A stretch of 64,000 bases of DNA from an uncultured Erythrobacter sp. (GTDB lineage Bacteria; Pseudomonadota; Alphaproteobacteria; Sphingomonadales; Sphingomonadaceae): positions 434,001-498,000 of the forward strand of contig CANMSD010000002.1 in the NCBI GenBank assembly GCA_947500645.1, written 5' to 3'. The first letter of the stretch is position 1; each line of letters starts with the position of its first letter. The notes under the pieces were generated by a model, which was not told the DNA's origin, ran no database searches, and worked only from the letters and a program-made list of their open reading frames with translations. The translations under genes and the position numbers were made by a program. Below are positions 13,192 to 20,082 of this stretch, piece by piece.

Positions 13192-13597
13192 TTCTATCTC
13201 CTAAGTCAGAGACACATTCGATTAGCCCTGGCAGCCCTACCGGCCAGGCCAATCTCCGATTCATGTGTCGGTGAAGGTCGCGCACATAGCGTGTCTGGCG
13301 CGCAATGCAAGTGATTCGAGGAGCGGTTCGTCTTCGTTCTGGGGCTTGACCACCCGCACCCTCCACCCGGATGGTATCCCGGCAGGCTCCAGGTGGAGGG
13401 CGTGGGTGGCTCGGTTCGTCGCTGGTACGCCACGTTTGGAACACATGGAACACTGTCCTGGAGCTAAAATCCAATCGATCACAGACATCGCTTTTGATCG
13501 AGTGGCTCGATGAAGAAGGCTGATGATGTGAGCGAGAAATATCATGCGGAACATTCTGCCGCCGACACATCGAGTAGGAAAGTCTCTACGTGCCACA
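13192..13597. other. Gene-free interval between rpmI and the Fic patch
   Basis: About 400 bases with no gene I can defend. A minus-strand frame at 13261-13488 could encode a 75-residue peptide beginning MSVIDWILAPGQCSMCSKRG with one CxxC pair, but it has no ribosome site and no family I recognise. The rpmI promoter must lie in the part nearest 13192. Base composition becomes AT-richer toward 13600, where the Fic patch begins. Confidence 0.4.
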
Positions 13598-14065
13598 CTA
13601 ACGAGTAGGCCTGATCCCGCAATGAAACTGCAAACTCTGATAGTACCAGTGATGAAGGAAGCCCAATGGTGTCTTCTCGACACCTCCCATCATCCAAAGC
13701 CACAAGACACGTCCTGATCTACCATTACCGTCCAAGAAGGGGTGCAGCGCTTCATAGGCTTGGTGCGCTAAGTAGGGGTCAGTAAGGTTTCCAAGGAGGT
13801 TTTCCAAAGTGGCCCTAATGCTAGGACCGCCAGGAGGCGCAACATAGCGCCCAACCCGAACATCCATGCCCGGTTGAATACGTAAAGCGGCATCGGGTTG
13901 GATCACGCCAACAAAATTTACAAGGCTGCCTACCGAAGGGCCAACGCGGAGAAATTCATGGTGTGCGTCAATTTCATGCTGTGTTGGAGGGCGCAGTATT
14001 CCTTCAATCCGATTGCTCTCGCTTACAAAGTCCCGCATTGCATTTGATGAACGAAATGAGAACAT
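13598..14065 (-). CDS. Fic-domain protein with canonical motif and N-terminal inhibitory helix
   Basis: A 155-residue Fic protein. The catalytic motif HPFLDGNGRSGR (residues 108-119) is complete: His108, acidic Asp112 and Arg116/Arg119, the form that transfers AMP from ATP to hydroxyl side chains. Near the N-terminus, SNRIEG (17-22) fits the (S/T)xxxE(G/N) inhibitory motif, so Glu21 probably blocks ATP positioning in cis. The C-terminus (PLGFLHHWYYQSLQ) resembles other short Fic proteins, so the gene seems intact. ATG 14065 follows AGGAAAG. It is divergent from the second Fic gene and in AT-richer DNA than its surroundings. Its target is unknown. Confidence 0.85.
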   Translation of the reverse strand: MFSFRSSNAMRDFVSESNRIEGILRPPTQHEIDAHHEFLRVGPSVGSLVNFVGVIQPDAALRIQPGMDVRVGRYVAPPGGPSIRATLENLLGNLTDPYLAHQAYEALHPFLDGNGRSGRVLWLWMMGGVEKTPLGFLHHWYYQSLQFHCGIRPTR

Positions 14066-14252
14066 TCATCTTTCCTACACCTATCCTTAGACATATTGAA
14101 GCATTGAATTGGCCTGATCTGCAAACCCTTCCGTCCACAGGGGATTCACAGGCTATTTTTTGCGTGCTAACGAAAAACGAATCACACAACACTTAATGCG
14201 TGTGTTCATACCAGAATTATATATCTGGACCGACTTAGAGTGGGGATTTATC
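14066..14252. other. Divergent AT-rich intergenic region of the Fic pair
   Basis: This stretch is distinctly AT-richer than the flanking core genes and should hold both divergent promoters. No repeat or operator was identified with confidence. Confidence 0.4.
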
Positions 14253-14411
14253 ATGACTGAAGAACTCAAGGCGGAGTTAGAAAGGGTCAAGAATCGGAAA
14301 ATGACCCCTGCTGAAATTGAAGAACAGCGGATCAGTTTCGTTTATGGAAATGCACCTAAAGATGATAACGGCACTAAAGAAACAGTGAAGAAGTCTCTGG
14401 AAATGCTATAA
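14253..14411 (+). CDS. Small protein upstream of the second Fic gene (possible antitoxin partner)
   Basis: A 52-residue protein starting MTEELKAELERVKNRKMT after a GGGG-type ribosome site. An upstream in-frame start exists but lacks support. It is charged and helical at the N-terminus and contains EEQRISFVYGNAPKDD. The part SFVYGN (28-33) has the spacing of the Fic inhibitory motif (S/T)xxxE(G/N) but with Gly in place of Glu. Small proteins in this position are often FicA-type antitoxins; that role here is inferred only from position. A terminator-like hairpin separates it from the Fic gene 90 bases downstream. Confidence 0.6.
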   Translation: MTEELKAELERVKNRKMTPAEIEEQRISFVYGNAPKDDNGTKETVKKSLEML

Positions 14412-14464
14412 TCCACACGCAGCCTGCTTGACATGAGAGGCAGCTATCTGAGACGAACATCAAG

Positions 14465-14489
14465 CCCGGCCAAATAGGTCGGGTTTTTT
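14465..14489 (+). terminator. Terminator-like hairpin between small ORF and Fic gene
   Basis: CCCGGCC (14465-14471) pairs with GGTCGGG (14477-14483) through one G:U, with a five-base loop, and is followed by TTTTTT. It stands 54 bases after the small gene's stop and 11 bases before the Fic ATG, so it should limit read-through into the Fic gene. Confidence 0.7.
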
Positions 14490-14500
14490 GTGAGGTTCGT

Positions 14501-15103
14501 ATGGTCATCTTGGAAGAAGGTACGGATATCTTCCAGTATGTGTCTGAGCGTAATAGGGCTCGGCAATACGATTTCTTACGCACGGCATTCGAGGTTTCGC
14601 AGGCAACTAGCGAATTCAGAGTTGGCGAAGAATTCCTCTGTGACCTGAACTACTTTGCGGTAAAATTTCTCTGCGAGCAGCCCGGACGCTACCGCGAAGG
14701 TATCGACGTGACGGTCGGCGCGCACAACCCTCCTGGGTGGGAGAATGTGCGACCACAGATGGTACAGTTCTGGAATAACCTTGATCGTCTGTGGGATAGG
14801 TTCTCGCCCATAGAATGCGCCGCATATGCACTATGGGGTGTGAACCACATTCATCCTTTTGTACAAGGAAATGGTCGAAGTTCGCGGGCTCTCGCATATT
14901 TCGTACTATGCAGAAGGTTTGGCATGTGGCTCCCAGGGAAGAGCACCATAATCGAACAGATAAGAATAGCCCATCGCGACGAATACTGTAACATTCTCCA
15001 AAAAATGGATGGTGACATTGATGTCGACGGCTTGACCAAACTCGACGAGATGGTCGCTTTTTTGGAGAGATTGCTTACATTGCAACTGCAATCAGCGGAC
15101 TAA
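14501..15103 (+). CDS. Fic-domain protein with altered catalytic motif
   Basis: A 200-residue Fic-fold protein. The motif reads HPFVQGNGRSSR (118-129): His118 and the anion-binding GNGRxxR are kept, but the acidic residue that coordinates Mg and the nucleotide phosphates (Asp/Glu) is Gln122. No (S/T)xxxE(G/N) motif is visible in it. The ATG follows GTGAGG. Gln at this position should weaken ordinary AMP transfer, so it may be a different transferase, a weak toxin or an inactive form. The 3' end is 4 bases from a fragment resembling the hisN 3' end. Confidence 0.85.
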   Translation: MVILEEGTDIFQYVSERNRARQYDFLRTAFEVSQATSEFRVGEEFLCDLNYFAVKFLCEQPGRYREGIDVTVGAHNPPGWENVRPQMVQFWNNLDRLWDRFSPIECAAYALWGVNHIHPFVQGNGRSSRALAYFVLCRRFGMWLPGKSTIIEQIRIAHRDEYCNILQKMDGDIDVDGLTKLDEMVAFLERLLTLQLQSAD

Positions 15104-15106
15104 TTT

Positions 15107-15154
15107 CCCTAACCCATCGCTTCAAGCGCTTCTTCCAGCCGCGCAAATTTGCTC
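15107..15154 (-). pseudogene. Remnant of an inositol-monophosphatase (hisN-like) gene 3' end
   Basis: 41 of 48 bases match 19081-19128, the 3' end of the intact hisN-like gene, in the same orientation. The minus strand reads ARLEEALEAMG and then a stop, identical in those 11 residues to the intact protein's C-terminus. Upstream of this the frame is broken by a stop within 20 codons. The repeat and the intact gene bracket the fap-like operon. Confidence 0.6.
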
Positions 15155-15210
15155 GCCAATCACCACGCTGACTTGGTGCAATCACTTTCCCGGAGGTCCA
15201 AGCGCAAGAT

Positions 15211-16653
15211 CTATAAAGTGAACGGTATCCGCAAGACCATGCGTACATCGGGAGCATCATCGGTCAAACCCGCTTCAAGCCCGAAATTCACGCTGGTGCG
15301 CCGATCCACTTTGTAGGTCGAACCAAACAGAAAACGGCCCACCTGCAAATCGCGTGAGGTCTGCGTGTTAGGTTCGGCCCCATCGGTCAAAGCGCGGGTG
15401 GTCGTCTCCGTACCGAAGCCCCAGCTGTGCGCGTATCCAAAGTTGAGCGACAGGCGCGGGTTTAGCGCCAAGCCCACGCCAGCGCTGAACGACAGGGAAT
15501 CGCCTGGGTCGACCCGTTCGATCTGCACCGGCGGAATGACGGTGTTGACGTCACGGCCGAAATTCTTGGTGTAGCTGAGGCTGCCGAACAGCACGCCCGG
15601 ATCGCTTGGCAAAATCGCCGTGATCCCCGGAGTCACACCCCAGAAACCCGATCCCGTGGCGGCTTCGCTCGCTTCGCCAAACTCATTTCGAGCGACCTGA
15701 AACGGGCCTGTTCCGGTTGGCACGTTCACCTGAAGGTTGCCGATCAGATAAGGGCCAAACCCGCGCGGCGCATGCAATTGCTTGCGTAGTGACAGCTCGA
15801 CGTCACCTACACCATATCCGTTGGCGCTGTTGTCAATCTCGCGCGTGACGCCACTGGCGTCAGGGCCAGCAACGGGCGCGAGCACGGACGTGTCCCAGCG
15901 CGCAACGAATGGCACATCGACGCCAATTTCGATCGAGTCTGTCAGGCCGTATTGCAGACCCACTTTCTGAGTGAAGACATCCTGCCGACTTTCATTGATG
16001 TCGAACACGCCGATCAGGACGGATTCGACCACTTCCACCCCGCGGAACAACGCGCGGTTGCGGTCGGCGCGGGCATAGCTCCACGCAACCTCTCCGCTCA
16101 ATTTGCCCTTTTTGGTGATGGCGCTGCCCTGGCGACCAAGTGAAGCGATCTCCGGCTGACGGTCAGCATCCTCGGGAGCGACACCAACCGCGCCCTCCGG
16201 ACGGCCGCCGTTGGCATTCGCTGACTGACCAGCGCGCGACGATGCGGCTGCAACACGCTGGCTCGGCTCTGACGCAGAGCGCGCGCGAGACGGTGCGCTG
16301 GCGCGGCGCGGCTGCACAGCGCCAGCGGCATCGCCATCGGCATAGCGCGCAGGCTCTTCGCCAAGGGCGCGCGCCAACCGCCTTTCCATCGCATCCAGCC
16401 GTTCCTGCTGTGCCTGAAGCGAACGGATTTGCTGCGTGATCGATGCGCGTTGCGCAGCGACTTCTGCGCGCAATTGCACGAGCTCATCGGCTTGCGCGTT
16501 CGGCGATGCCGAGGCGGCTGGTTCGGCGATCGGCTGAACGATGGGTTGTGAAACCATCTCAATTTCAGCTGTTTGCGGAGCCTCTTGCGCAGAAACAGGC
16601 GCCGCGAACAACGCAGCGCCCACAAGAGCGAAGCCCAGAAATGCGTTACGCAT
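15211..16653 (-). CDS. Coiled-coil plus beta-barrel outer-membrane protein (FapF-like)
   Basis: A 480-residue exported protein, last gene of the five-gene operon. Signal peptide 1-22 (cleavage after VSA-Q), a heptad-rich coiled coil at about 55-99 (ELVQLRAEVAAQ...RLDAMERRLARAL), a low-complexity Ala/Ser/Arg linker (100-170), and from about 185 alternating beta-strand sequence ending IPFTL, as in an outer-membrane barrel. FapF of Pseudomonas, the pore that exports amyloid subunits, has the same coiled-coil/linker/barrel plan and also closes its operon. The family with YARADRNRALFRGVEV is widespread in alphaproteobacteria but uncharacterised as far as I know. The FapF role is inferred. Confidence 0.7.
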   Translation of the reverse strand: MRNAFLGFALVGAALFAAPVSAQEAPQTAEIEMVSQPIVQPIAEPAASASPNAQADELVQLRAEVAAQRASITQQIRSLQAQQERLDAMERRLARALGEEPARYADGDAAGAVQPRRASAPSRARSASEPSQRVAAASSRAGQSANANGGRPEGAVGVAPEDADRQPEIASLGRQGSAITKKGKLSGEVAWSYARADRNRALFRGVEVVESVLIGVFDINESRQDVFTQKVGLQYGLTDSIEIGVDVPFVARWDTSVLAPVAGPDASGVTREIDNSANGYGVGDVELSLRKQLHAPRGFGPYLIGNLQVNVPTGTGPFQVARNEFGEASEAATGSGFWGVTPGITAILPSDPGVLFGSLSYTKNFGRDVNTVIPPVQIERVDPGDSLSFSAGVGLALNPRLSLNFGYAHSWGFGTETTTRALTDGAEPNTQTSRDLQVGRFLFGSTYKVDRRTSVNFGLEAGLTDDAPDVRMVLRIPFTL

Positions 16654-16690
16654 TATGTAAAACCACCCGTCCGGTCGGTTCGAACTGAAG

Positions 16691-17200
16691 TCAGTTCAAA
16701 CCGAGGTTTGCTGTATCCCTAGCAAGCGTACCCAGAGTGGGGATGAGCGATCCAAGCGAACCAGCCTCCATTCGCGACAGGTCGAGATCAATGTTCGTCA
16801 CTGTCGAAATGGTGCGGTCATCCGCTGAATTGGTGATGATACTGCCGGTTACACGGCCCATAAGGTGAGAAACTGATGTTCCTAGAACCTCAATGGTTAC
16901 ACGGCTGCTTGTATCGTCGCCCTCGGTTGTTACCGAAACGCCCTGAGACACTTGCTCAATCGATACAATGGGCCCGCCGTCTGCCAGCGCATAGGTGGAG
17001 CGCAAAACGAGCTCTCCATCGATGCTGGTTTCTTGTTGGATGGCAATATCCAGATCGATGCCACCGGGAAGAATGAAACCGCCGCGCTCTTGCGCCAACG
17101 CAACCTCATCCATTGCAGCAACATCGCCAAAGGGCGATTGCGCGGCAACGGGTGCAGCTACAAAAGCGAATAACGCAACAAGGAAGCGAATAAATCGCAT
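16691..17200 (-). CDS. Secreted protein with a Gly-Gly site, candidate C39 substrate (FapE position)
   Basis: A 169-residue exported protein. ATG 17200 gives a clean signal peptide (RFIRFLVALFAFVAAPVAAQS); a longer in-frame start at 17215 overlaps the peptidase gene. After the signal comes MDEVALAQERGG followed by FILPGGIDLDIAIQQ. The first stretch looks like a double-glycine leader, with Leu at -7 and Gly-Gly at -2/-1, the type cleaved by C39 peptidases; the adjacent upstream gene encodes one. The rest is beta-rich and polar (VLRSTYALADGGPIVSIEQ). The function is unknown; it holds the place of fapE in the fap order. Confidence 0.7.
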   Translation of the reverse strand: MRFIRFLVALFAFVAAPVAAQSPFGDVAAMDEVALAQERGGFILPGGIDLDIAIQQETSIDGELVLRSTYALADGGPIVSIEQVSQGVSVTTEGDDTSSRVTIEVLGTSVSHLMGRVTGSIITNSADDRTISTVTNIDLDLSRMEAGSLGSLIPTLGTLARDTANLGLN

Positions 17201-17201
17201 C

Positions 17202-17921
17202 TCAAAATTCCCCATAGCCCGGCGCGGTAAGGTTCAGCACTTGCTGACTCACCGGCTGGAACATGCCCTGGTCCGGCCCAAAAGCTGAGACGCGGCCCCA
17301 TTGCGCGTCCGCGTTAAAGGCAAAACCGTTAATATTTGCACCGCCTGTCACGACAAAATAGACGCCGTTCCAGTCTTTCTCGAACTGTTCGCGGTCCATC
17401 CGGCGCAGGCCCAGAGAAGGGTCACCGACCAGCACAAAGCCATCTTCTACGCCCTTGACGACGACGAAATGACGGTAACCGTCCGGCGCGATCAGAGCGA
17501 TGCCGGGCACTTGTGCCTCGCGCACCTGATCAAGGTTAACCTGATATCCGTTTGCATCGATATTGTTGGCGGCAAGATACCGCTTCATGTCGAGCAACGA
17601 GAAGCCTAACCGCTGAATTGCCTCACGGTCACCATCGCGCCACATGCCGCGGAACACCTGGCTTTCGCCTTGTTCGCGGCCATAATGATAGGTCAGCAGG
17701 GTCGCCAGAGCGGCAGAACCGCAGCTGAAGTCGAACTGCTGCCGAACCACCGTGTCATAGCGCATCTCGATCATGCTGCGCGGCGCCGTGTCGAGCGCCA
17801 CCGAACCGGCATGGGTTGTCAGCTGGAACCGATTGTCATCAATCGGCACAGCCGCACAGCCCGACACGAGCAAAGCCCCTGTCATTGCCGTCAGCATTGT
17901 TGAGAGCGAACGACCCACCAT
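17202..17921 (-). CDS. C39-family cysteine peptidase lipoprotein (FapD-like)
   Basis: A 239-residue protein with a lipoprotein signal (ALLVSGC, lipid Cys22) and a C39 double-glycine peptidase domain: Cys67 in QQFDFSCGSAALATLLTYHYG, His151 in GYRHFVVVKG and Asp167 in GDPSLG. It lacks the ABC transporter and membrane domains of bacteriocin exporters, so it should act in the periplasm. FapD of the Pseudomonas fap operon is also a stand-alone C39 peptidase placed between the amyloid genes and fapE/fapF. The start is 1 base after the upstream gene's stop and its end abuts the next gene, so the genes are translationally coupled. Confidence 0.88.
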   Translation of the reverse strand: MVGRSLSTMLTAMTGALLVSGCAAVPIDDNRFQLTTHAGSVALDTAPRSMIEMRYDTVVRQQFDFSCGSAALATLLTYHYGREQGESQVFRGMWRDGDREAIQRLGFSLLDMKRYLAANNIDANGYQVNLDQVREAQVPGIALIAPDGYRHFVVVKGVEDGFVLVGDPSLGLRRMDREQFEKDWNGVYFVVTGGANINGFAFNADAQWGRVSAFGPDQGMFQPVSQQVLNLTAPGYGEF

Positions 17922-17922
17922 C

Positions 17923-18279
17923 CTACTTGCCGGCAGGCAGGGCGATGTTCAACTGGATAGCCGCGTTGATCGCAACGTTGTTACCCGTGTTGGCGTTGAG
18001 GATCGTCATCCCGTTCATATTGTTGAACGCGTTGTCGCTGATTTCGATCGTGCCGGTGTTTGAATTGTCGCCAACGCTGTTGTTACCGACCGAGTTGGCC
18101 TGGTCCGACTGCGTCACCTGATTGACATCTTCGCGCCCGGCGATCTTCGCCAGCTTGCCTTCCGCAACCGGGGTCGCTTCTGCAAAGACCGGCTTGTCCG
18201 CAGGCTTTGCCTCTTCAGCGAGCGCTGGCGATGCAACAGCTGCGCATAAAAGCGCGCAGTTTATGCTGATCTTGTTCAT
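17923..18279 (-). CDS. Secreted Asn-rich protein, amyloid-subunit-like (small)
   Basis: A 118-residue exported protein. ATG 18279 follows AAGGAG and gives a signal peptide ending ASPALAE; an earlier frame start is less likely. Residues 60-118 are rich in Asn/Ser/Gly/Thr and contain SDNAFNNMNGMTILNANTG (81-99) followed by NAAIQLNIAL. The upstream gene's protein has a closely similar segment (12 of 19 positions), so the two are divergent paralogues. The composition and paired-paralogue arrangement resemble FapA/FapB/FapC. No catalytic motif is present. Assignment as a fibre subunit or nucleator is inference. Confidence 0.75.
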   Translation of the reverse strand: MNKISINCALLCAAVASPALAEEAKPADKPVFAEATPVAEGKLAKIAGREDVNQVTQSDQANSVGNNSVGDNSNTGTIEISDNAFNNMNGMTILNANTGNNVAINAAIQLNIALPAGK

Positions 18280-18343
18280 AGCTTGAACTCCTTGTTCGGT
18301 TGCCCGCGCCGTCAAAGCAGCGCGGACTTGCCCGAAAACCAGC

Positions 18344-18889
18344 TTAGTTGACGTCGAAATTGTCGGTCGACACTGCGACGGTCACGCTGGCGTTTTGCGA
18401 AGCGCCAACACCGGTGTTCTGGTTCATGGCGTTCATGCCCGCATAGTTCTGGAACGCGTTGTCCGAGTTGCTGAGACGGTTCACGAAGCGCGCTTCGTCT
18501 TCAACGTCGCCAAAGTCGACATCAACGCCGGTCACAACGTTTGAAAGCTGGGTTTCAGCAACGAGTGCGCTATCTCCAAAGACTCGGTCACCGCTGAAGC
18601 GTACATCTGCGTCAAAGTTATCCGAGTTGTTATCGAAGCTGTCGTTGTAGTCACGATTATCGTCGAAGCTGTCGTTGAACACCTTGTCCGAGTTGTCGTT
18701 GAAGCTGTTGTTGTCCGAATTGTCATCGAAGCTGTCGTTGAACGTACGATCCGAGTTATCGTCGAAGCTGTCTTCGATCACGGTCGGGCTCAGAACATCG
18801 ACGCCATCTTCATATACGGCGCCGTCCTGTGCGAAGGCGGATGTGCTGGTTGCGAGCACCGCAACAGCGGCAATCATGGTGGTTTTCAT
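18344..18889 (-). CDS. Secreted Asp/Asn-rich repeat protein, amyloid-subunit-like (large)
   Basis: A 181-residue exported protein and the first gene of the operon. Signal peptide 1-20 (STSAFA-Q). Residues 39-92 consist of about five copies of a DSFDDNSD-like unit, giving a very acidic, Asp/Asn/Ser/Phe region that could bind calcium. The C-terminal part has SDNAFQNYAGMNAMNQNTG (142-160) and QNASVTVAV, shared with the next gene. Length, low complexity and position fit a secreted fibre subunit. ATG 18889 follows an AGGAGACC ribosome site. The exact function is unknown. Confidence 0.75.
   Translation of the reverse strand: MKTTMIAAVAVLATSTSAFAQDGAVYEDGVDVLSPTVIEDSFDDNSDRTFNDSFDDNSDNNSFNDNSDKVFNDSFDDNRDYNDSFDNNSDNFDADVRFSGDRVFGDSALVAETQLSNVVTGVDVDFGDVEDEARFVNRLSNSDNAFQNYAGMNAMNQNTGVGASQNASVTVAVSTDNFDVN
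18614..18775 (-). repeat. In-frame tandem repeats encoding DSFDDNSD units
   Basis: About five degenerate units of 24-33 bases, each with the core TCGAAGCTGTCGTTG on the plus strand, encode the acidic repeats of the 181-residue secreted protein. Synonymous and non-synonymous differences between units show the array is not brand new. Confidence 0.8.
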
Positions 18890-19000
18890 TTCTGGTCTCC
18901 TGAAAGAATCATGGACACCAAAGTGCCCGTCGCATCAGGGCAAATACGCAGGGAGCTTCTTACGAATGGGAAACCGTCACGGCTAAGAAGAGGTTAATTT

Positions 19001-19016
19001 GCCCCTTGGATGGGGC
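19001..19016. terminator. Hairpin between hisN and the secretion operon
   Basis: GCCCC-TTGGAT-GGGGC, flanked on both sides by TTAATTT. It lies 67 bases downstream of the hisN stop and upstream of the first secretion gene. The flanking tract has few consecutive T residues, so terminator strength is doubtful. Confidence 0.35.
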
Positions 19017-19082
19017 TTAATTTGAGTCAGCCTTTCGCTGGACCAAGCAACCAACCGTTCGACCGGCGCGCCAAAGGTGCCC

Positions 19083-19850
19083 CTACCCCATCGCCTCCAG
19101 CGCTTCTTCCAGCCGCGCAGGTTCGCCCAGCGCCAGCACGCTGCCATCGCTGTTGGCATCGAGCGGGTTGCCCTGCCAGTCGCTCATCATCCCGCCAGCC
19201 CCTTCGACAACGGGCACGAGCGCGGCGTAGTCGTGCAGCTTCAATCCAGCTTCGCACACGACATCGAGATGACCCGAGGCAAGCAGGCCGTAATTGTAGC
19301 AATCCCCACCCCATACCACGATTTGCGAGCTCTGCGCGGCGAGCGACATGAACGCGCCCGCAGCATCATCGGTAAAGTACTGCGGGCCGCTGGATGCAAT
19401 GGTCGCGTCGGACAGCTCTTTGACGCTGCGAGTGCTCACCGGCTTGCCGTTGAAGGTCGTGCCTTCTCCGATCCGCCCAACCCAGCGCTCGCCCGCGATC
19501 GGTTGATCGATGACGCCCAGCACCGGCCAGCCATCCTGCACCAATGCAATCAAAGTGCCGAATATCGGGCGACCAGCCATAAAGCTGATCGTGCCGTCGA
19601 TCGGATCCAGAACCCATTGCCGTCCGGCGCCTTCATTACGGGTGCCATATTCCTCACCAATGATGCCGTCATCGGGGCATTCCGCCTCGATAATGGCGCG
19701 CATCGCGGCCTCTGCCGCGCGGTCGGCCTCGGTCACGGGCGAGGCGTCATCCTTGCGCTCCTGCTCCCACGCTCCGCGAAAAAGCGGGCGGATGGCGGCA
19801 CCTGCGGCATCGGCGAGGCGCGAGGCGAGAGCTGCGTCTTTATTTGTCAT
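19083..19850 (-). CDS. hisN: Inositol monophosphatase family phosphatase, HisN-like histidinol-phosphatase
   Basis: A 255-residue Mg-dependent phosphatase. ATG 19850 (MTNKDAALASRLADAAG) is preferred over a longer frame. Motifs: DDASPVTEADRAAE, IIGEEYGTR (metal Glu), WVLDPIDGTISFMAGRPIFGTLIAL (metal Asp pair) and WGGDCYNYGLLASGHLDVVCEAGLKLHDYAALVPVVEGAGG near the C-terminus. In this branch the enzyme usually dephosphorylates histidinol phosphate; acting on inositol phosphate is the alternative. Its 3' end is the boundary of the fap-like operon and is partly duplicated at 15107-15154. Confidence 0.85.
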   Translation of the reverse strand: MTNKDAALASRLADAAGAAIRPLFRGAWEQERKDDASPVTEADRAAEAAMRAIIEAECPDDGIIGEEYGTRNEGAGRQWVLDPIDGTISFMAGRPIFGTLIALVQDGWPVLGVIDQPIAGERWVGRIGEGTTFNGKPVSTRSVKELSDATIASSGPQYFTDDAAGAFMSLAAQSSQIVVWGGDCYNYGLLASGHLDVVCEAGLKLHDYAALVPVVEGAGGMMSDWQGNPLDANSDGSVLALGEPARLEEALEAMG

Positions 19851-20082
19851 GGAAAGGCTGGTTCCATTCGCGGCGCAGCTTGGCAAGGATAAAATGCCCG
19901 TTCTGCGGATAGATGGCAGGTACGAGTTGCAATTGACTCAATAGCTTAGTCATGTCTTAAGTATCGGAAGCAGCGCCTATAGTGGCGGTGCATGAACGAG
20001 ATGCAAGGCTCCCAAACCATAGGCAGGACGGCACCAACCTGCAGATGTGGGGAGCGCGAAGGACATTGCACGCGGGGGTGTC

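What the first reader, a model, noticed from the sequence alone, without database searches (positions are those of the whole stretch)
15211..18889. Five-gene secretion operon that resembles the fap functional-amyloid operon
Reading 5' to 3' on the minus strand: secreted repeat-rich protein, secreted Asn-rich paralogue, C39 peptidase lipoprotein, secreted Gly-Gly protein, coiled-coil plus barrel outer-membrane protein. Pseudomonas fapABCDEF has the same series of types (A/B/C subunits, D C39 peptidase, E, F pore with coiled coil and barrel). The sequences share no obvious identity I can see, so this may be a divergent or parallel fibre-export system of alphaproteobacteria.
Basis: partly seen in the sequence, partly recalled or inferred. 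Interest (0 to 1): 0.82.

Follow-up and report, generated by a model that had tools for sequence, protein, structure and literature searches.

The report
Fap sister exporter with cleavable leaders
A five-gene operon in a bacterium close to Erythrobacter encodes relatives of the pore and the protease that export Pseudomonas amyloid, and two of its secreted proteins carry a leader motif that the protease likely recognises and is predicted to cut; the same motif lies in FapE, a protein of the amyloid system itself, so the unproven target of the amyloid protease becomes directly testable.

Summary
In detail: five same-strand genes at 15211-18889 encode a repeat-rich secreted protein, a smaller paralogue, a C39 peptidase, a small secreted protein and a barrel protein. 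Yet it is not the Fap operon: the subunits match no FapB/FapC model, and the peptidases branch apart from FapD (99/94, unrooted). In 80 named loci chosen by the peptidase alone, the paralogue lies just upstream in 80, the FapE-like protein just downstream in 75. The new point is the substrate code. Both neighbours carry the C39 double-glycine leader spacing: [LIVM](-12), [LM](-7), G(-2); G(-1) is usual only in the FapE-like one. FapE carries it too (16 of 16 read), with K/R at -1. Published work already suspected FapE as FapD's target, but found no canonical C39 sequence; this gives a precise site. Best reading: Sec export, then a second leader read by the periplasmic peptidase, then export through the pore. 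Cleavage and fibres are untested.

The parts
18344..18889 (-). g1: Sec-exported repeat-rich protein (181 aa), putative main exported subunit
   Evidence: crude Sec-signal test positive; no Pfam or NCBIfam family at E<=1; a counterpart, picked by position and by N/S/D/T/G/Q content, lies upstream of g2 in 93 of 96 loci
18617..18781 (-). SFDDNSD-type repeats inside g1
   Evidence: direct-repeat families D1/D2
18368..18460 (-). C-terminal module of g1 (NAFQNYAGMNAMNQNTG..QNASVTVAVS)
   Evidence: profile match to the g2 module, score 41.5 vs shuffle maximum 11.9; weak in-register similarity to Fap repeats (18.9 vs maximum 12.0)
17923..18279 (-). g2: small Sec-exported paralogue (118 aa) with leader motif, putative minor subunit or nucleator
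   Evidence: 119 database proteins, the window's own included; directly upstream of C39 in 80 of 80 named loci
18133..18168 (-). leader motif of g2, positions -12 to -1 (V38...L43....G48 R49)
   Evidence: AF2 helix at residues 40-46 = positions -10 to -4, low confidence
17935..18033 (-). C-terminal module of g2 (NAFNNMNGMTILNANTGNNVAINAAIQLNIALP)
17202..17921 (-). g3: periplasmic C39 peptidase of FapD type; lipobox LVSGC in the signal peptide; Q61, C67, H151, D167 invariant in 16 aligned sequences, the window's included
   Evidence: Pfam C39 6.3e-20; NCBIfam FapD 2.8e-44, under its cut-off; alignment
16691..17200 (-). g4: Sec-exported FapE-like protein (169 aa) with double-glycine leader and predicted beta domain
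   Evidence: NCBIfam FapE 0.0029 over residues 1-48 only; hhalign to FapE family 95.3%; AF2 mean pLDDT 71
17078..17113 (-). double-glycine leader of g4, positions -12 to -1 (M30....L35...R39 G40 G41)
   Evidence: AF2 helix at residues 32-38 = positions -10 to -4, then beta domain from 42
15211..16653 (-). g5: FapF-type outer-membrane pore, putative coiled-coil N-terminal part and C-terminal barrel
   Evidence: PDB FapF 5o67 4.9e-32 over 161-478; NCBIfam FapF 3.3e-41, under its cut-off
15107..15152 (.). direct repeat copy, duplicate of the 3' end of the inositol monophosphatase gene
   Evidence: 46 nt, 87% identical to 19081-19126
19081..19126 (.). direct repeat copy at the 3' end of the inositol monophosphatase gene (19083-19886)

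Best explanation
The operon encodes a relative of the Fap amyloid export machine in which two proteins, predicted to be carried over the inner membrane by Sec, likely bear a second leader that the periplasmic FapD-type C39 peptidase would read and cut before export through the FapF-type pore. Shown here: homology of g3 to FapD and of g5 to FapF; homology of the N-terminal part of g4 to FapE; a shared C-terminal module in g1 and g2; constant linkage; and a double-glycine-type leader in g2 and g4 with the spacing that ABC-linked C39 peptidases need. Inferred: g1 is the main exported subunit, g2 a minor or nucleating subunit, and g4 the FapE-like accessory that must lose its leader to become active or to release the pore. 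The exported proteins would polymerise at the cell surface through their C-terminal Asn/Gly modules. By the same motif, FapE is the predicted substrate of FapD in canonical Fap systems, cut or bound at L-x3-RG[K/R].
For: FapD and FapF homology. Catalytic residues invariant in 16 aligned C39 sequences. Linkage among 80 named loci chosen by C39 only: g2 80, g4 75 adjacent, g5 73 found. Reciprocal search with the g4 profile: 9 of 240 class genomes match, the window's own included; all 9 also hold the C39 gene, and in each a g4 match lies within 1 kb of it. Leader statistics, one row per locus: g4 [LM](-7) 95 of 95, R(-3) 91, G(-2) 93, G(-1) 91 of 95, [LIVM](-12) 87 of 94; g2 [LM](-7) 96 of 96, G(-2) 92, [LIVM](-12) 88 of 95. 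Position-only control, no profile used: [LM]x3RGG in 63 of 78 ORFs directly downstream of C39 against 27 of 2644 other ORFs; 200 shuffles of the 78 give a mean of 0.7 and a maximum of 4. Published C39 consensus L(-12)xxxE(-8)L(-7)xxxxG(-2)G(-1), with a helix from -10 to -4 (PMC6959990, passages and section 8). AF2 places short helices at -10 to -4 in both g2 and g4. FapE: 16 of 16 read have [LM](-7), G(-2), [LIVM](-12). In Pseudomonas the FapD active-site Cys is required for FapC secretion, and FapE is the only Fap protein with complete N-terminal processing by mass spectrometry (PMC5557850, passages).
Against: Position -1 is Gly in only 34 of 96 g2 rows (R 39, K 10, Q 7, M 5, W 1), is K/R in all 16 FapE read, and is Arg in the window's own g2, where that Arg is at least 90% conserved in 61 close relatives. 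C39 enzymes usually cut after GG or sometimes GA (PMC5557850), so cutting at these sites is not assured. E(-8) of the consensus is met in only 39 of 95 g4 and 27 of 96 g2. The looser pattern used for g2 is common in unrelated ORFs: 638 of 2644, against 65 of 80 upstream ORFs. g1 shows no leader: loose pattern in 10 of 93. The same mass-spectrometry paper holds that the FapF linker may be processed too, but a similar motif is found in only 15 of 100 pores. The helices lie in stretches of low confidence, block means about 58-73. Similarity of the g1 and g2 modules to Fap repeats is weak, 26% and 17%. Four of 13 class-sample regions with such a peptidase show no g2, g4 or FapE match. Nothing here shows cleavage, fibres or amyloid.
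Confidence: 0.7

Rival explanations
1. It is simply a divergent Fap operon, with g1 and g2 as degenerate FapC and FapB.
For: Same gene order peptidase, FapE-type, pore; FapD, FapF and FapE N-terminal homology; weak in-register similarity of the C-terminal modules to Fap repeats.
Against: No FapB/FapC model hit in g1 or g2 at E<=1. C39 tree splits 45 window-type rows from 17 Fap and 2 third-type rows at 99/94, unrooted. The same genus holds separate Fap-type loci: L037 proteins match FapB 1.4e-24 and FapC 7.4e-21, and FapE matches reach 2.0e-22. One genome, G027, has both kinds at different places.
Confidence: 0.12
2. The leader motif is a docking signal: the C39 protein binds g2 and g4 as a chaperone or usher, and need not cut them.
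For: Position -1 is not Gly in most g2 and in all FapE read; some C39-type proteins act purely as chaperones (stated in PMC6173800, passages).
Against: Q, C, H and D are invariant in the 16 aligned; the FapD Cys-to-Ala change abolishes FapC secretion in the E. coli assay (PMC5557850); g4 keeps GG in 89 of 95.
Confidence: 0.2
3. The exported proteins form a non-amyloid surface coat or adhesin, using a Fap-type exporter.
For: Barrels akin to FapF (COG4313) also serve uptake of hydrophobic compounds (PMC6173800, passages).
Against: g1 and g2 end in a conserved Asn/Gly module reminiscent of amyloid repeats; a C39 partner had not been reported for COG4313 uptake channels (PMC6173800).
Confidence: 0.3
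4. It is a bacteriocin or peptide-signal type I secretion cluster with double-glycine peptides.
For: C39 domain and double-glycine leaders.
Against: The window's C39 protein has 239 aa and no ABC transporter part; g1, g2, g4 and g5 pass a crude Sec-signal test; g2, g4 and a FapF-type pore recur around the peptidase in the 80 loci. I did not search the loci for ABC transporters.
Confidence: 0.03

Closest known systems
Fap functional amyloid system (fapABCDEF) of Pseudomonas and relatives
   Same: FapD-type C39 peptidase, FapE-like N-terminal part with leader motif, FapF-type pore; order D-E-F.
   Different: No FapB/C model match; one C-terminal module per subunit instead of several Fap repeats; g2 is an extra leader-bearing protein directly upstream of the peptidase; -1 of the FapE-type leader is Gly rather than K/R; separate peptidase branch.
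Fap-type loci in the same genus (G019, G027:C2, G016, G018)
   Same: Peptidase and pore homologues; leader motif in FapE.
   Different: They carry proteins with several Fap repeats and FapE by NCBIfam in G019 and G027 and by my own FapE profile in all four; FapB and FapC models were tried on G027 only and match.
Fil putative pilus system of Acinetobacter
   Same: C39 peptidase FilB and pore FilC are recognisable relatives (FilB model 1.5e-34, FilC model 4e-20 on the window proteins); FilA has a leader-like MDDAALSAATGQ behind its signal.
   Different: Weaker match than to FapD/FapF; no g1, g2 or g4 counterpart seen by eye in the one locus read; FilA is a DUF6160 protein.
Peptidase-containing ABC transporters (PCAT, ComA, LahT) and double-glycine leaders
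   Same: C39 domain (6mpz 2.4e-12 with the profile) and leader consensus with -12, -7, -2 spacing and a -10 to -4 helix.
   Different: There the peptidase is cytosolic and joined to an ABC transporter; here it has its own signal peptide and would act outside the inner membrane on Sec-exported precursors.

Membership tests
Fap system | FapD-type C39 peptidase | tested here: met
   NCBIfam FapD 2.8e-44, 151 bits, below the equivalog cut-off of 330
Fap system | FapF-type pore barrel | tested here: met
   4.9e-32 to FapF 5o67 over residues 161-478; NCBIfam 3.3e-41, below the cut-off
[quoted passage not shown]
   9 of 14 hydrophobic a/d positions in the best register, no control; trimer state not testable
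Fap system | FapE | tested here: inconclusive
   leader plus about 25 residues homologous (hhalign 95.3%); the rest of g4 not aligned to FapE; NCBIfam 0.0029
Fap system | FapB/FapC subunits with several Fap repeats | tested here: not met
   no NCBIfam FapB/FapC match for g1 or g2 at E<=1; the Fap-type proteins of L037 and L051 do match
Fap system | peptidase falls inside the FapD clade | tested here: not met
   45 window-type, 17 Fap and 2 third-type rows; the branch between them has 99/94 support, unrooted
Fap system | extracellular amyloid fibres | not testable with these tools
   needs a strain
C39 double-glycine leader substrate | hydrophobic -12, L/M -7, G -2 | tested here: met
   g4: [LM]-7 and G-2 together 93 of 95, [LIVM]-12 87 of 94; g2: 92 of 96 and 88 of 95; FapE 16 of 16
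C39 double-glycine leader substrate | E at -8 | tested here: inconclusive
   39 of 95 g4 and 27 of 96 g2; the window has Ala in g4 and Lys in g2
C39 double-glycine leader substrate | Gly (or Ala) at -1 | tested here: inconclusive
   met in g4 (91 of 95), not in the window's g2 (Arg) nor in FapE (K/R)
C39 double-glycine leader substrate | cleavage after the motif | not testable with these tools
   needs peptidase assay or N-terminal sequencing
Fil system | FilA, FilD, FilE, FilF beside FilB and FilC | tested here: inconclusive
   no Fil model other than FilB and FilC hits the five proteins at E<=1, but I did not check which Fil models the library holds

The most novel reading that the evidence does not exclude
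FapD-type peptidases read a general periplasmic leader code: proteins first exported by Sec carry a second, double-glycine-type leader that a free-standing C39 peptidase reads outside the inner membrane to license export through a FapF-type pore. This code unites Fap (substrate FapE), Fil (FilA) and the unnamed, widespread system described here (substrates g2 and g4), which is a second family of extracellular fibre machines.
Probability: 0.55. Interest if true: 0.85.

Novelty: new variant of a known kind. Interest (0 to 1): 0.7.

Why it matters
FapD must be catalytically active for Pseudomonas amyloid to leave the cell, yet its substrate was stated as unclear in 2017 and undetermined in 2018 (PMC5557850, PMC6173800; passages). 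The 2017 paper already named FapE as the most likely target and pointed to GG and GA motifs in it, while stating that Fap proteins lack canonical C39 sequences. Comparing the window's system with Fap points to a different, precise site, L-x3-RG[K/R] right behind the signal peptide, with the published -12/-7/-2 spacing, and so gives residue-level tests. It also describes a linked gene set (g1, g2, C39, g4, pore) in alpha-, beta-, gamma- and former deltaproteobacteria whose g1, g2 and g4 proteins reach no Pfam or NCBIfam cut-off in the examples scanned. I found no description of it in the open-licence PMC library.
Full report
WHAT IS THERE. On the minus strand at 15211-18889 lie five genes in one direction with short gaps or none. 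I call them g1 (18344-18889), g2 (17923-18279), g3 (17202-17921), g4 (16691-17200) and g5 (15211-16653). g1, g2, g4 and g5 pass a crude Sec-signal test; g3 begins with a signal that ends in a lipobox, LVSGC, and a lipobox-like pattern is seen in 23 of 81 peptidases of this kind. Above their cut-offs Pfam finds only C39 in g3 (6.3e-20) and Phenol_MetA_deg in g5 (2.7e-6). NCBIfam finds FapD in g3 (2.8e-44), FapF in g5 (3.3e-41) and a trace of FapE in the first 48 residues of g4 (0.0029), all below the equivalog cut-offs, and nothing in g1 and g2 at E<=1. Against solved structures g5 residues 161-478 match FapF at 4.9e-32.

WHERE IT OCCURS. The genome is close to Erythrobacter: some database relatives of g2 and g4 are named Erythrobacter sp.. 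The pore protein is found in 18 of 61 genomes, the window's own included. Among these, the complete order g1-g2-C39-g4-pore on one strand is seen in three same-genus loci (L021, L022, L023) and, with an extra g1-type gene, in one of another family (L027). In other Sphingomonadales the pore gene is often turned round. The window genome has a second locus of the same kind at G000:C2:941000-959000, and just these two peptidase matches. A scan of named genomes with the peptidase alignment kept the best 80 of 586 confirmed stretches, in Sphingomonas, Croceicoccus, Brevundimonas, Massilia, Cupriavidus, Halomonas, Acidithiobacillus, Geobacteraceae and others. In these 80, g2 lies directly upstream in 80, g4 directly downstream in 75, and the pore is found in 73, 42 on the same strand and 31 on the other. 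Of the missing pores and g4, most lie at or near contig ends; L082 lacks a g4 profile match without that excuse, although its downstream ORF shows TTDELREARGAG; L085 and L103 have about 8 kb of sequence behind the peptidase and little before it; in L090 and L093 my script paired the peptidase with the other copy's g4. In an even sample of 240 alphaproteobacterial genomes, the window's own included, the peptidase profile matches 14 and the g4 profile 9; all 9 also have the peptidase, and in each a g4 match lies within 1 kb of it; one further weak g4 match in G632 is unlinked. Of 13 regions fetched from this sample (12 genomes), 8 show g2, peptidase and g4, 7 of them with the pore; one is Fap-type; and 4 show no g2, g4 or FapE match.

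THE LEADER CODE. Aligning g2 and g4 across loci shows one feature that hardly changes. g4, 95 loci: L/M at -7 in 95, R at -3 in 91, G at -2 in 93, G at -1 in 91, and LIVM at -12 in 87 of 94. g2, 96 of 98 loci with letters there: L/M at -7 in 96, G at -2 in 92, LIVM at -12 in 88 of 95, but G at -1 in only 34 (R 39, K 10, Q 7, M 5, W 1). To avoid circularity I also took the ORFs next to the peptidase by position alone: [LM]x3RGG occurs in 63 of 78 downstream ORFs, in 27 of 2644 other ORFs of the same loci, and in at most 4 of the 78 in 200 shuffles. The looser [LM]x4G[GRKQM] occurs in 65 of 80 upstream ORFs, in 638 of 2644 others, and in at most 25 in shuffles. Several of the misses are wrong reading frames picked by the script. 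The three-point pattern [LIVM]x4[LM]x4G[GRKQM] occurs in 71 of 77 g4 and 67 of 80 g2 (anywhere behind residue 15) and in 149 of 2659 control ORFs (residues 15-140). In the window the leaders are M30 to G41 of g4 and V38 to R49 of g2.

WHY THIS MEANS C39. For peptidase-containing ABC transporters the leader consensus is L(-12)xxxE(-8)L(-7)xxxxG(-2)G(-1); residues -10 to -4 form a helix in a groove of the peptidase, and L(-7) and L(-12) are needed for binding (PMC6959990, passages and section 8). The -12/-7/-2 spacing here is identical; E(-8) is met in only 39 of 95 g4 and 27 of 96 g2. The AlphaFold models, of modest confidence, place short helices at -10 to -4 in g4 (residues 32-38) and in g2 (40-46); in g4 the predicted beta domain starts just behind the GG. 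In those transporters the peptidase is cytosolic. Here both peptidase and precursors carry export signals, so the reading would take place outside the inner membrane.

LINK TO FAP. FapE proteins found with the NCBIfam model in two genome samples (9 of 147 and 13 of 299 genomes) have the same motif in 16 of 16 read, for instance DAEMAELRGRY in a protein above the FapE cut-off, always with K or R at -1; one has His at -3. The g4 and FapE families align over the leader and the next 25 residues (hhalign 95.3%, E 2.4e-8, score 61.9 against a maximum of 15.9 in 25 column shuffles). [quoted passage not shown] it proposed FapE as the most likely substrate because of GG and GA motifs (PMC5557850, passages; also PMC6173800, passages and section 6). 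The comparison made here supports FapE as the target, and says that it does possess a C39 leader by spacing, apart from position -1, at a site other than a GG. FilA of Acinetobacter has a similar stretch, MDDAALSAATGQ.

THE EXPORTED PROTEINS. g1 counterparts, picked by position and composition, were found in 93 of 96 loci; they are 143-870 aa long, median 416, 13% Asn on average, and share a C-terminal module with g2 (95.8% probability). The C-terminal part of g4 also resembles the g2 module (86%; score 29.6 against a maximum of 10.2). Similarity to Fap repeats is in register but weak. Fap-type loci in the same genus carry several repeats per protein, and those of L037 match FapB and FapC.

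IS IT FAP? By what it works like, in all likelihood yes; by membership, no. A tree of 64 peptidases separates 45 of this kind from 17 of Fap loci and 2 of a third kind, with 99/94 support for the branch; the tree is unrooted and the rows were chosen by neighbourhood. FapB/FapC-type subunits are lacking. The 2018 review noted that fapD and fapF homologues lie together in five further phyla (PMC6173800, section 6), so the pair alone is not new. The conserved g1, g2 and g4 partners and the leader code were not found in print by my searches of the open-licence PMC library; most subscription papers are not in it.

ORIGIN OF THE LOCUS. The operon is flanked by a 46-nt direct repeat, 15107-15152 and 19081-19126, 87% identical, a copy of the 3' end of the neighbouring inositol monophosphatase gene. 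In G027 the ribosomal protein L35 region and the phosphatase gene lie 77 bp apart, against about 5.8 kb in the window; in five other relatives the distance is about 0.5, 0.8, 1.0, 1.9 and 3.4 kb, so the site varies in content. G027 carries its own operon elsewhere. The operon thus probably lies in an insertion, together with two Fic-domain genes.

CONFIDENCE. Shown: genes, homology, linkage, motif. Inferred: that the peptidase cuts at the motif, that g1 is the main subunit, that the product is a fibre. I give 0.7 to the model as a whole.

Noticed in passing
window 13284-19126: The operon probably lies in an insertion between the rpmI (L35) region and an inositol monophosphatase gene, with a 46-nt direct repeat of the phosphatase 3' end on both sides of the operon; in six relatives the two genes are 77 bp to 3.4 kb apart, in the window 5.8 kb.
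   Followed up: partly
window 13598-14065 (-), 14501-15103 (+), 14160-14411 (+): Two Fic-domain genes, the first matching only 27 positions at the end of the domain model, and a small ORF between them in the same interval; possible Fic toxin-antitoxin remnant.
   Followed up: no
L026 (G000:C2:941000-959000): Second locus of the same kind in the window's own genome, with divergent proteins and leaders DDMRGG, GELRGG and, in the pore, SQMRGAG; its closest peptidase in the tree is from Phenylobacterium.
   Followed up: partly
L033, L034: A third Fap-related type in the same genus: FapE-like proteins with LADLRGG or LDESRGG and repeat subunits; the peptidases form their own branch.
   Followed up: no
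L035 7410-8042, L037 7556-8206: Two Fap-type loci of this genus have an extra secreted-looking gene (210-216 aa) between fapE and fapF; its C-terminal part resembles a peptidoglycan-binding domain to my eye, not tested.
   Followed up: no
L157, L158, L159: C39 peptidase adjacent to a remote FapF-type barrel without g2, g4 or FapE matches; substrates unknown.
   Followed up: no
L047 7987-9054 (Vibrio plasmid): Large protein with SFNDNSD repeats very like those of g1, beside the same exporter; its peptidase gene reads as two overlapping ORFs.
   Followed up: no
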